From: Sphingomonas hankyongi
GTDB taxonomy: Bacteria; Pseudomonadota; Alphaproteobacteria; Sphingomonadales; Sphingomonadaceae
DNA: 64,000 nt
Direction: 5' to 3'
Assembly: GCF_023516575.1 (NCBI RefSeq)
Contig: NZ_JAMGBE010000001.1
Span: 248,001-312,000 of the forward strand
The translations under genes and the position numbers were made by a program. Below are positions 33,214 through 43,327 of the stretch, one piece after another; positions within the stretch are counted from its first letter, which is position 1, and each line of letters begins with the position of its first letter. A model generated the notes under the pieces. It saw nothing but the letters and a program-made list of their open reading frames with translations, was not told the origin of the DNA and did not search any database.

Positions 33214-34077
33214 CTATTCAGCGACCATCAGCTCCCGCTCAGGCAGCGGAGAATTCTTCACCGTGCGGTCCAGTTCGAGGAGAGTCGCCAGTAGACTCTC
33301 CATGCGATCGAGTGGCCAGGCATTCGGTCCGTCGGACTTCGCGTTTGCGGGATCGGGATGCGTTTCCATGAACAATCCGGATATACCGGCCGCAACGGCC
33401 GCCCGCGCGAGAACTGGAACGAACTCCCGCTGGCCGCCAGAGCTCGTACCCTGACCGCCCGGAAGCTGCACCGAATGCGTCGCGTCGAACACCACCGGGC
33501 ATCCTGTGTCACGCAAGATCGCCAGGCTGCGCATGTCGGAGACGAGGTTGTTGTAGCCGAAGGACGCACCCCGCTCGCAGACCATGATCGTCTCCTCGTT
33601 CACACCCGAGGCATGCGCCGCGTTACGTGCCTTCTCCACGACGTTCTTCATGTCCCCCGGAGCCATGAACTGCGCCTTCTTGATATTGACGGGTTTTCCG
33701 GCGGCGGCAACGGCGTGGATGAAGTCCGTCTGGCGAGCCAGGAAGGCAGGCGTCTGCAGGACGTCGACTGCCTGCGCCGCGGCGGCGATCTGGGGGATGT
33801 CGTGAACGTCCGTCAAAACCGGCACGCCGATTTGCTCTCGCACTTTCGAAAGTATCCGTAGCCCCTCGTCCATTCCAAGGCCCCGAAAGCTGCTATCCGA
33901 GGTCCGGTTCGCCTTGTCGTAACTGGACTTGAATATGAAGAGGATGCCGAGCTTGTCGGTAATGCTCTTCAACCGTTCAGCCACTCGGAGTTGCAGCTCC
34001 TCGCTTTCGACGACGCATGGGCCGGCAATGAGGAAGAGGGGCTGGTCCAGCCCAATCTCGCGATCAAACAGGCGCAC
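33214..34077 (-). CDS. kdsA: 3-deoxy-8-phosphooctulonate synthase KdsA
   Basis: A 287-residue enzyme that condenses arabinose-5-phosphate with phosphoenolpyruvate to make KDO-8-phosphate for the LPS inner core. It shows LFLIAGPCVVESEEL, FKSSYDKANRTS, VPVLTDVHD, LQTPAFLARQTDF, and the VVFDATHSVQLPGGQGTSSG stretch. It lies downstream of kdsB and kdsD on the same strand; together they cover three steps of CMP-KDO synthesis. Confidence 0.97.
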   Translation of the reverse strand: MRLFDREIGLDQPLFLIAGPCVVESEELQLRVAERLKSITDKLGILFIFKSSYDKANRTSDSSFRGLGMDEGLRILSKVREQIGVPVLTDVHDIPQIAAAAQAVDVLQTPAFLARQTDFIHAVAAAGKPVNIKKAQFMAPGDMKNVVEKARNAAHASGVNEETIMVCERGASFGYNNLVSDMRSLAILRDTGCPVVFDATHSVQLPGGQGTSSGGQREFVPVLARAAVAAGISGLFMETHPDPANAKSDGPNAWPLDRMESLLATLLELDRTVKNSPLPERELMVAE

Positions 34078-34118
34078 GGCGGCTCCTTACCCGAAGGGAC
34101 CTGGAAGAGCCACGATCG

Positions 34119-40561: not shown

Positions 40562-42569
40562 CGATCCTCTTTTCAGCGATCGCGCCTCCGGCAAGAAGGT
40601 TTGGATATTACTCTGCAATCGGACCGGCGACGACAATCAGGTGCGCGCGCTCGCGACGGCCGTTGGGCTTCCCTTCGAGGTCAAGGAGCTGGAATTCAAC
40701 CGGCTGCGCCACGTGCGTCGACTGCGTGACGAGCGCCTCTTGTATCTGACTCAAGAGGCACGCTCGAAGCTGGTCCCGCCCTGGCCCGACCTTGTGATTG
40801 GACTGGGTTACGAAAGCATGCCGGTCGCGCGCTTCATTCGTCGCCAGTCGCGAGGTCGCACCCGTCTGGTGCAGATCGGCAATCCCCGATCGACGATCGA
40901 CGACATCGACCTGCTGATTGCGACCCCGCAATATCCGATCGCGAGCGCCGCGAATGTCCTCAGGATCCCGCTCCCGATCGGGAACCCTGCCGGGTGCGTG
41001 GAGCCGACCGCCGAAGAACAGCTTTGGCTGGAATCGATGCCTCGACCGCGCCGGATGATCGCTGTTGGCGGAAACACGAGACAGTGGAAGGTCGACCCTG
41101 CGAAGCTCGAGCGTGCTGTCCGCAATCTCAAGGCAGAACGAGCGAAGCTCGGTGGAAGCGTGATTGCGGTCACCAGCCGACGCACGCCGAAGTCGGTCGC
41201 TCGCATGTTGGAGAAGCTACTGCGTGATGATGCGGAAGCTTGCGTGCACAACTTCCCGCGCTTCGCTCCGCTTCTTGCTTGCTGCGACGAGTTCCACGTG
41301 ACCGCTGACAGCGTCTCGATGCTTTCGGAGGCCATCCTTACGCAAAAGCCGGTCGCAATGATTCCGATCGGCCGTTCATTTCGGGGGAAGGCTGCTCATC
41401 TGCTGCGCAGCCTGGGCGTTCGCCTCCGATCGAACACCGACCTGCCTGCTTTCTGGAATCACCTCCGCCTGAGCGGTCTCGTGGGCCGGGCTGACGACCC
41501 CAAGGCCTCTGACGCCGTCGAAACGACACAGGAAGCTGCCAAGGCGGTCCGACAGGTGCTCGAACAGCCCCGGAGCCCAAAAATCTGGGCGCTGCTCGGC
41601 GCGCACCGGGGCGATAATAACCAGGTCCTGGCACTCGCCGAGGCGCTTGGCCTTCCTTTTGAACGCAAGCAGCTGACTTACAATCGCTGGCGCCATCTCG
41701 GGCCACTATTGCTTGGAGCGACGCTGCGCAGTCTCGATCCCCGTTCTCGCGAGTTGCTCACCGGCAAAGCCCCCGATCTCACCATCTCGACAGGCCATCG
41801 CAGCGTGGCCGTCGTTCAGGCGCTACGAAAGCAATCGGGCGGCAGCACGCGATCCATCCACGTCGGCTATCCCCGCATTTCTCCGGCCAAGTTCGACCTG
41901 GTTATCGCTACGCCCGAATATCCGATCGAAGATCACGCGAACTTGCTGCGACTGCCCTTCGCGCTGACCAGGCGAAAGGCGCCGGCTGAAAACCGGGCGG
42001 ATTTCTGGGACGCCCATCCAGCCCCGCGACGCCTTCTGATCCTGGGCGGCTCCACACTCTATTGGCGGCTCGACCCCGAAGAGGTCTGGAGAACAGTGGA
42101 TGACCTGCTGGCTGGCCCGGCTGGAAACGGGTCGCTCGTCGTAGTCGGCAGTCCGCGGACCCCGCAACGCCTTCTCGCCGAGGTCGAGAAGCGGATAGCC
42201 AGCTCAAGCTGCCCGGCGACTCTCATTCCTTTCGGCGGAATTCCCACTTACGTCGAGCTGCTCGATCACGCCGACGAGATCCATGTAACGGCCGACAGCG
42301 TGGCGATGGTCTCCGATGCGATATCCACGCGGAAACCGGTGCAGCTCGTCCCGGTCCGGCCTAGCCTCCTGGGCAGCTGGGTCATGACAGTCATGAGCTT
42401 TGCCCGTCCCGCAAAACCCATTCCGCCGAACGATCTTCGCGCTTTCTGGCGGACGCTTCGCGAGCACGGTCTCATTTCTGACGCCGTTGGCTTGGGCCCA
42501 AGCGCAGTGCCCAACGTCAACCGCCTCGCCGCTTCGCGCTCCGCTACGATCCTCGGGGGCGGTCCATGA
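40554..42569 (+). CDS. Tandem-duplicated ELM1-family (DUF1022) protein
   Basis: A 671-residue protein formed by two complete copies of the mitochondrial-fission ELM1 / DUF1022 domain, about residues 14-310 and 342-650. Paired motifs: GDDNQVRALATAVGLPFEVK and GDNNQVLALAEALGLPFERK; LLIATPQYPI and LVIATPEYPI; FHVTADSVSMLSEAI and IHVTADSVAMVSDAI. The fold resembles GT-B glycosyltransferases, and bacterial members occur beside LPS genes, but no reaction is established. Start is TTG at 40554 with GGGAG upstream. It overlaps the amidotransferase gene by eight bases and the oxygenase gene by four. Confidence 0.9.
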   Translation: MPDDPLFSDRASGKKVWILLCNRTGDDNQVRALATAVGLPFEVKELEFNRLRHVRRLRDERLLYLTQEARSKLVPPWPDLVIGLGYESMPVARFIRRQSRGRTRLVQIGNPRSTIDDIDLLIATPQYPIASAANVLRIPLPIGNPAGCVEPTAEEQLWLESMPRPRRMIAVGGNTRQWKVDPAKLERAVRNLKAERAKLGGSVIAVTSRRTPKSVARMLEKLLRDDAEACVHNFPRFAPLLACCDEFHVTADSVSMLSEAILTQKPVAMIPIGRSFRGKAAHLLRSLGVRLRSNTDLPAFWNHLRLSGLVGRADDPKASDAVETTQEAAKAVRQVLEQPRSPKIWALLGAHRGDNNQVLALAEALGLPFERKQLTYNRWRHLGPLLLGATLRSLDPRSRELLTGKAPDLTISTGHRSVAVVQALRKQSGGSTRSIHVGYPRISPAKFDLVIATPEYPIEDHANLLRLPFALTRRKAPAENRADFWDAHPAPRRLLILGGSTLYWRLDPEEVWRTVDDLLAGPAGNGSLVVVGSPRTPQRLLAEVEKRIASSSCPATLIPFGGIPTYVELLDHADEIHVTADSVAMVSDAISTRKPVQLVPVRPSLLGSWVMTVMSFARPAKPIPPNDLRAFWRTLREHGLISDAVGLGPSAVPNVNRLAASRSATILGGGP

Positions 42570-43327
42570 GGACGGTGGAACGCGACATCGAGAATTATCT
42601 CGTCGACGCCGTCGAACGAAGCGAGCTTCGACACTCCCCCTTCGATCACATCTACATGGCCAATGTGCTTCCGCGGCCGGAATATGAGACCTTGCTCTCC
42701 TCCATGCCTGATCGACGATCCTATCATGAGCTGCGGCACCGCGACGCAATGCGTGCCGACGGACACAGCACGCGGCTGCGCATGTACCTTTATCCGGAGC
42801 TCCTGCGGCAGCTGCCTTCCGAGCAACGGCGGGTATGGGCGTCGATCGGCCGCGCCTTTTGCTCGCGTGAACTCGAGCAGGCCTTCAGGAGAAAGTTCCG
42901 TTCCGTTCTCGAAGCGCGCTTCGGCAAGCCGGTCGGACGCATTGGGCTCTACCCTGTCCCAATATTGCTTCGTGACCAGCCAGGATACCGGATCGGAATC
43001 CACGCGGATGCGCCCACCAAGGCAATCACCGTCCAATTCTACCTGCCTGCGGACGAGCGCCAGCGGCATCTCGGCACGATCTTTCACGAGGGCGAGACTG
43101 GCGAGCTCGCCGAGCGACAGACAAAAATGCCCTTCCTCCCGGCAAGCGGCTACGCTTTTCCGGTTTCGCTGACGGAGAGCTGGCACAGTGCGGACCGGAC
43201 TGAAGTCGCCGACGGCGAACGCGTTTCGATGATGGTCACCTACTATGTCGCCGACACCATCCTCGGCCGGATCAAGTACCGGTTACGGAGAGCCGGAATG
43301 CGGGTCGGGCTGCACCCGAGGGGGTAA
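42566..43327 (+). CDS. 2-oxoglutarate/Fe(II)-dependent oxygenase-like protein
   Basis: A 253-residue protein with the double-stranded beta-helix iron triad: His146 and Asp148 in GYRIGIHADAP, and His207 in SLTESWHSADR, with Arg219 in DGERVSMMVTYY placed to bind 2-oxoglutarate. Such enzymes hydroxylate sugars, lipids, peptides or small molecules. Here it is the third gene of a tightly overlapped operon with the amidotransferase and ELM1-like genes, so hydroxylation of the same glycan or glycolipid is the simplest idea. The substrate is unknown. Confidence 0.8.
   Translation: MRTVERDIENYLVDAVERSELRHSPFDHIYMANVLPRPEYETLLSSMPDRRSYHELRHRDAMRADGHSTRLRMYLYPELLRQLPSEQRRVWASIGRAFCSRELEQAFRRKFRSVLEARFGKPVGRIGLYPVPILLRDQPGYRIGIHADAPTKAITVQFYLPADERQRHLGTIFHEGETGELAERQTKMPFLPASGYAFPVSLTESWHSADRTEVADGERVSMMVTYYVADTILGRIKYRLRRAGMRVGLHPRG

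What the first reader, a model, noticed from the sequence alone, without database searches (positions are those of the whole stretch)
33214..43327. Surface-glycan module joining KDO synthesis, a flippase, a sulfotransferase and an amidotransferase-ELM1x2-oxygenase operon
Within 10 kb lie kdsD-kdsB-kdsA, a Wzx-type flippase, a PAPS sulfotransferase and three overlapped genes coding for an AsnB-like amidotransferase, a double ELM1 protein and a 2OG/Fe oxygenase. No standard glycosyltransferases, polymerase or ligase are present. The set has the chemistry to flip, sulfate, amidate and hydroxylate one glycolipid, with the ELM1 protein as a possible GT-B transferase. I know of no described pathway with this combination.
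Basis: inference. Interest (0 to 1): 0.8.

Follow-up and report, generated by a model that had tools for sequence, protein, structure and literature searches.

The report
Double Kdo-transferase-like gene without lipid A
A sphingomonad that lacks the usual lipid A gene makes the sugar Kdo and probably attaches it to a surface glycan with a fused double enzyme from a family named after mitochondrial fission, which gives a direct test of where Kdo goes in such cells.

Summary
The genes are real and lie where stated: kdsD-kdsB-kdsA, a Wzx flippase, a sulfotransferase, and overlapping genes for an AsnB-type amidotransferase, a 671-aa double ELM1 protein and a 2OG/Fe-oxygenase-like protein. The ELM1 guess can be sharpened: an ELM1-family protein, KdoT of Acinetobacter, is a CMP-Kdo transferase in vitro (PMC12856342). 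The window's genome has kdsD/B/A but no match to WaaA, KpsC/S or LpxC. Of 37 genomes of the genus, 16 of 17 with kdsB have ELM1 or KpsC/S, against 1 of 20 without kdsB; both exceptions are incomplete genomes. In several relatives ELM1 sits in a KdsD-KdsB-phosphatase-KdsA-GT-ELM1-Wzx cassette. Both halves keep the key arginine in 23 of 23 aligned proteins. Best reading: a two-module Kdo transferase for a flipped surface glycan in a cell without lipid A. The full gene set is clustered in none of 36 congeners; AsnB plus ELM1 is the recurring pair. Kdo as donor is inferred; sulfate, amide and hydroxyl on the same glycan are unproven.

The parts
33214..34077 (-). kdsA, Kdo-8-phosphate synthase
   Evidence: TIGR01362 and PRK05198 over cut-off
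34119..34934 (-). kdsB, CMP-Kdo synthetase (island type A clade)
   Evidence: NF003950 over cut-off; tree 98/94
34916..36049 (-). kdsD, arabinose-5-phosphate isomerase; start probably internal near 35887
   Evidence: TIGR00393 over cut-off; start by codon score
36069..37436 (+). Wzx-type flippase, divergent from kdsD
   Evidence: PF01943 over cut-off; 56-57% relatives in G016 and G012
37390..38379 (-). sulfotransferase, convergent with wzx (47 nt overlap)
   Evidence: PF13469 and PF00685 over cut-off
38636..40561 (+). AsnB-type glutamine amidotransferase
   Evidence: TIGR01536, PF00733, PF13537 over cut-off
40554..42569 (+). ELM1x2: fused pair of ELM1/KdoT-family GT-B modules, SRRT (R210) and SPRT (R535); predicted double Kdo transferase
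   Evidence: PF06258 twice; R210 and R535 invariant in 23 of 23; model pLDDT 87, GT-B matches to each half
42566..43327 (+). 2OG/Fe(II) oxygenase-like protein
   Evidence: model matches PolD and PasI; HxD..H..R invariant in 33 of 33; no Pfam

Best explanation
The locus supplies and uses Kdo for a surface glycan in a bacterium without lipid A. KdsD, KdsA and KdsB, together with a HAD phosphatase that stands in the kds cassette of relatives and is on another contig here (G000:C3:234370-235182), make CMP-Kdo. ELM1x2 is a fused pair of KdoT-type GT-B transferases that moves Kdo onto a membrane-bound oligosaccharide on the cytoplasmic side; with two intact modules it probably adds two Kdo residues in different linkages, each half placing CMP-Kdo with its S-x-R-T arginine. 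A Wzx flippase then turns the glycolipid over. AsnB amidates a carboxylate of the glycan, and the oxygenase and sulfotransferase add hydroxyl and sulfate. Shown here: gene identities, no match to the classical Kdo transferases or LpxC, co-occurrence with kdsB, cassette linkage, motif in both halves. Inferred: Kdo as donor, the phosphatase's role, the acceptor, the number of Kdo residues, and all tailoring steps.
For: KdoT, an ELM1-family protein, is a CMP-Kdo transferase in vitro and depends on the second arginine of SRRT (PMC12856342: abstract, passages, section 8). R210 and R535 invariant in 23 of 23. Own genome: no PF04413, PF05159 or PF03331 match. kdsB with ELM1 or KpsC/S in 16 of 17 genomes, 1 of 20 without kdsB (Fisher p 2e-8, not corrected for kinship); island-type kdsB with ELM1 in 9 of 11, 1 of 26 others (p 4e-6). 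Cassette with ELM1 between kds genes and Wzx in relatives. Both halves are closest to kds-linked ELM1s in the tree (99/95 for the C side, 90/87 for the N side).
Against: No biochemistry; KdoT itself could not be aligned. KdoT's acceptor, Kdo2-lipid IVA, cannot be made here. In 72 of 72 non-sphingomonad ELM1 loci no kds gene was found within about 10 kb, and in sphingomonad L141 ELM1 and Wzx stand without kds nearby. G022 and G005 have the kds-Wzx cassette without ELM1 (G022 has KpsC/S; G005 is 77% complete). Outside the genus G055 has kdsB with none of the three transferases, so unrecognised users of CMP-Kdo exist. Other Kdo transferase types (WbbB, the K13 enzyme) were not searched.
Confidence: 0.6

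Rival explanations
1. ELM1x2 is a GT-B transferase for another sugar, for instance a uronic acid or its amide made with AsnB; the kds genes share the locus by chance or because they serve the same glycan through a different, unrecognised Kdo transferase.
For: AsnB adjoins ELM1 in 7 of 7 loci examined with a fused, tandem or AsnB-clade ELM1, while only the window has kds genes beside that pair. ELM1 loci outside sphingomonads lack kds genes nearby (0 of 72). G055 shows kdsB without any of the three transferase families.
Against: kdsB tracks ELM1 or KpsC/S; kds-linked ELM1s are the nearest outgroups of both halves; the one biochemically proven ELM1 protein found in the searches uses CMP-Kdo.
Confidence: 0.25
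2. Only one half transfers Kdo and the other half uses another donor or is structural; the AsnB-linked C half takes the amidated sugar.
For: N-type and C-type ELM1s are two clades, and single AsnB-linked ELM1s (G030, G031, G034) are all of the C type.
Against: Both halves keep the motif arginine, and a kds-cassette ELM1 of G023 is sister to the C clade (99/95).
Confidence: 0.3
3. The oxygenase is a Kdo hydroxylase in function (Kdo to Ko), by a different family from KdoO.
Against: No Pfam match at E 10, so none to the Kdo hydroxylase family (the family's accession is recalled). The oxygenase of G036 lies away from kds and ELM1.
Confidence: 0.2
4. A chance neighbourhood: four short transcription units (kds, wzx, sulfotransferase, asnB-ELM1x2-oxygenase) of unrelated glycans gathered at one site.
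For: Strands alternate; the window's Wzx is of another clade than the cassette Wzx (28-34% against it); the sulfotransferase's best relatives sit elsewhere (L062-L065); the full set is not clustered in any of 36 congeners.
Against: kds, ELM1 and Wzx recur together in relatives; AsnB, ELM1, GT2 and a sulfotransferase of another cluster recur in L046 and L048.
Confidence: 0.25

Closest known systems
KdoT (A1S_2903, ELM1 family) of Acinetobacter baumannii lipooligosaccharide
   Same: ELM1 family, GT-B fold, S-x-R-T arginine, CMP-Kdo at hand
   Different: KdoT is one module of about 35 kDa and needs Kdo2-lipid IVA made by WaaA; here two modules are fused, and no LpxC or WaaA was found
KpsC of group 2 capsules (dual-module Kdo transferase; PMC10148158, search listing only)
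   Same: Two Kdo-transferase modules in one protein; would work likewise
   Different: Different family (PF05159); no PF05159 match in this genome
WaaA (KdtA)
   Same: CMP-Kdo-dependent GT-B enzyme acting on a lipid acceptor
   Different: PF04413 absent in 37 of 37 genomes of the genus
KdoO Kdo 3-hydroxylase
   Same: Fe/2OG oxygenase linked to Kdo
   Different: Window protein has no Pfam match and a different nearest fold relative (PolD/PasI)
Wzx-dependent surface glycan loci
   Same: Flippase, nucleotide-sugar genes and tailoring enzymes
   Different: No polymerase or initiating transferase seen in the 30 window ORFs scanned

Membership tests
ELM1/KdoT family (PF06258) | Match to the family profile over its cut-off, in each half | tested here: met
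   159 and 137 bits, cut-off 27
ELM1/KdoT family (PF06258) | GT-B fold | tested here: met
ELM1/KdoT family (PF06258) | Second arginine of the S-R-R-T motif | tested here: met
   R210 and R535 invariant in 23 of 23; the first arginine is proline in the C half
KdoT proper (third-Kdo transferase of lipooligosaccharide) | Acceptor Kdo2-lipid IVA available in the cell | tested here: not met
   No LpxC and no WaaA match; so it is not filed as a KdoT orthologue
KdoT proper (third-Kdo transferase of lipooligosaccharide) | CMP-Kdo transfer in vitro | not testable with these tools
   Needs purified protein
KpsC/KpsS | PF05159 | tested here: not met
   No match in the own genome; controls ring
WaaA/KdtA | PF04413 | tested here: not met
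   No match in the own genome; controls ring
2OG/Fe(II) oxygenase superfamily | Double-stranded beta-helix fold and HxD...H...R | tested here: met
KdoO Kdo hydroxylase | Match to its Pfam family | tested here: not met
   0 Pfam families at E 10
KdoO Kdo hydroxylase | Nearest fold relative is a KdoO structure | tested here: inconclusive
   Not among the rows listed
XrtA/PEP-CTERM amidotransferase (TIGR03108) | Score over the curated cut-off | tested here: not met
   489 bits against 817
Wzx/Wzy-dependent pathway | Wzx flippase | tested here: met
   PF01943 over cut-off
Wzx/Wzy-dependent pathway | Wzy polymerase and initiating transferase | tested here: inconclusive
   Not seen among 30 scanned window ORFs; the rest of the genome was not searched for them

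The most novel reading that the evidence does not exclude
Sphingomonads without lipid A keep a Kdo-containing inner core on another membrane anchor, such as a glycosphingolipid or a polyprenyl-linked oligosaccharide. A fused pair of ELM1 modules stands in for WaaA or KpsC and lays down two Kdo residues, which are then amidated, hydroxylated and sulfated: an LPS-like acidic surface layer built by a different set of enzymes.
Probability: 0.2. Interest if true: 0.85.

Novelty: new variant of a known kind. Interest (0 to 1): 0.62.

Why it matters
Kdo is best known as the link between lipid A and the LPS core and as the base of group 2 capsules. A genome with the CMP-Kdo genes but no match to the marker genes of either route suggests a third destination for Kdo and names the enzyme to test. 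It would extend the KdoT activity, shown for single-module proteins in cells with lipid A, to a double-module enzyme in cells without it, and give part of the many bacterial proteins annotated as 'mitochondrial fission ELM1' a testable role.

Tried and rejected
LPS as the product: rejected; LpxC has no match in 61 of 61 genomes searched and WaaA none in 37 of 37 of the genus. Group 2 capsule: rejected for this genome, no PF05159 match. The six accessory genes as one conserved operon: rejected. Scan of viral contigs with the oxygenase: no relative. ELM1x2 as a single protein against genome contigs: none; as an alignment: 79 loci, the best 80 of 531 confirmed. PDB sequence searches with the oxygenase and ELM1x2: best E 0.1 and 0.086, not significant, though the top one for the oxygenase, 9blq, is also the top fold match. 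Kdo-transferase and KdoO structures were not among the listed rows; this says nothing either way. First ELM1 tree held one row read from the wrong strand (G034); rebuilt. Promoter and terminator scans gave no more than shuffles (0 against 1.7; 6 against 8.6). KdoT itself could not be aligned: no Acinetobacter protein was seen in the returned lists.

Literature: the listings showed no paper linking ELM1 proteins or Kdo transfer to Sphingomonadales. Only open PMC papers are covered, several lists were capped (25 of 93, 20 of 277, 20 of 117, 12 of 498), and of most I saw titles and abstract beginnings. PMC13028669 was searched for Kdo, ELM1, lipopolysaccharide, flippase and sulfo: no occurrence.
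Full report

Which organism. The window lies in a genome of 2,548,888 bases, 99.96% complete. Congeners include Sphingomonas sabuli (G015: a protein of its locus L053 is identical to that record's, on a contig of the same length) and Sphingomicrobium sp. CRAIB_MAG125 (G036: contig C57 equals L138 in length and mirrored positions). The 4 listed oxygenase relatives whose rows name an organism clearly are all Sphingomicrobium.

No lipid A marker, no classical Kdo transferase. LpxC (PF03331) has no match in 61 of 61 genomes, while 4 of 14 control genomes ring. 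WaaA (PF04413) has none in 37 of 37 of the genus; 4 of the 24 genomes outside the genus have it. KpsC/S (PF05159) is absent from the window's genome, present in 11 of 37, with one more weak partial match in G036. Other Kdo transferase types, such as WbbB and the K13 enzyme (both only in the listing), were not searched. So the CMP-Kdo genes are present, while neither of the two main known routes is.

Co-occurrence. In the genus (37 genomes, own included) kdsB is in 17, ELM1 in 10, KpsC/S in 11. kdsB goes with ELM1 or KpsC/S in 16 of 17; of 20 without kdsB, 1 has either (Fisher p 2e-8). ELM1 alone goes with kdsB in 9 of 10 (p 0.002). The exceptions, G005 and G031, are 77% and 83% complete. KdsB falls into an island type A (98/94; 11 genomes with G010 placed by its neighbours; ELM1 in 9) and a type B (90/86; 6 genomes; KpsC/S in 6, ELM1 in 0). 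Kinship was not corrected for. Against the reading: G022 has type A and KpsC/S but no ELM1, and outside the genus G055 (93% complete) has kdsB and none of the three transferases.

The cassette. Between an SDF symporter and an EF-G-like gene several relatives carry KdsD-KdsB-HAD phosphatase-KdsA-c6-ELM1-Wzx. It is complete in L052 and L053, and S. sediminicola L139 and MAG L142 hold the same seven genes in order. L051 and L113 are two pieces of it in G028. L050 and L055 lack KdsA and c6; L054 is broken and shows no KdsA. G030, G034, G022 and G005 have kds plus Wzx there without ELM1 or c6 (L109-L112); G030 and G034 carry ELM1 with AsnB elsewhere (L048, L046). c6 has no Pfam family but invariant TDPD and QPWK stretches that recall GT8-type transferases. 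In the window's genome the island keeps the HAD gene and a cassette-type Wzx, with a pyruvyl-transferase-like and a GT4 gene between (L061), while the kds genes and ELM1 lie in the window. So Kdo supply and ELM1 sit at a second site here; the direction of the move is not known.

AsnB and the fusion. AsnB adjoins ELM1 in 7 of 7 loci examined with a fused, tandem or AsnB-clade ELM1: the window, L136, L137, L138 (also fetched as L049), L046, L047, L048; the ELM1s of the kds cassettes lack AsnB. In G036 the two ELM1 genes are separate neighbours (L049). N halves and C halves form two clades; the sister of the C/AsnB clade is a kds-cassette ELM1 of G023 (99/95), and kds-cassette ELM1s group with the N clade at 90/87. 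Fused homologues number 21 among the listed hits, at 46-67% BLAST identity (P0012-P0034 without two partial ones). The oxygenase is the least constant part: 2 of 37 genomes. P0015 and P0132, an ELM1x2 and an oxygenase, come from jgi contigs of equal length (3563), which suggests but does not prove that they are neighbours.

Wider view. In 79 ELM1 loci of named records c6 lies on the fetched stretch in 53 (four weak) and a relative of the L048 sulfotransferase in 30; KdsA in 3 and KdsB in 2, all sphingomonad-like. Among 31 congeneric loci, c6 is in 7 of 10 with ELM1 and 1 of 21 without, that one being the other half of a broken cassette. The 72 other loci have no kds genes nearby. ELM1 plus c6 thus has a broader glycan or lipid role, and the Kdo link seen here by neighbourhood is a sphingomonad feature, joined by the KdoT biochemistry.

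Mechanism and confidence. Kdo transfer by ELM1x2: 0.6. One glycan for the whole block: about 0.35. A Kdo hydroxylase role for the oxygenase: 0.2; KdoO is a precedent in enzyme class only (PMC8533242, passages). The fused pair recalls KpsC, described as a dual-module Kdo transferase (PMC10148158, search listing), but the families differ. Uronic acid amidation by AsnB-type enzymes in surface glycans is recalled knowledge.

Noticed in passing
L143-L214, for example L184 and L194: Across Proteobacteria, ELM1 loci often carry c6, a MsbA-like ABC transporter (41 of 79), a metallophosphoesterase (25), a Tam41-like protein (23) and a DAGK-type lipid kinase (20): an apparently undescribed lipid or glycolipid cluster.
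   Followed up: partly
L053:8200-9075; L048:8131-9033: c6 family: about 290 aa, no Pfam family, 5534 relatives at E 0.001, tightly linked to ELM1; looks like a GT-A glycosyltransferase.
   Followed up: partly
L061 (G000:C3:228001-248000): Second Wzx island of the own genome, with the HAD phosphatase, a pyruvyl-transferase-like and a GT4 gene.
   Followed up: partly
G043, G045, G051, G056: Four genomes of the order have a WaaA-family match although no LpxC was found in them.
   Followed up: no
L058 (G012): A relative of the window's Wzx lies near AsnB-type genes and a GINT1-like (inositolphosphorylceramide glucosaminyl transferase) domain, a hint at sphingolipid glycans.
   Followed up: no
L136:8027-11972 (Sphingomonas sediminicola): AsnB and ELM1x2 neighbours whose matches fall in several frames, so broken or mis-assembled.
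   Followed up: partly
L157:4399-5061 and six other loci: A different 2OG oxygenase family (PF13640) lies near ELM1 in 7 of 79 loci.
   Followed up: no
window 43359-45622: BlaR1-type M56 peptidase and BlaI-type repressor genes directly downstream.
   Followed up: no
window 30731-32809: Two-component regulator pair, response regulator close to the CzcR/CopR type but below that model's cut-off, next to kdsA.
   Followed up: no
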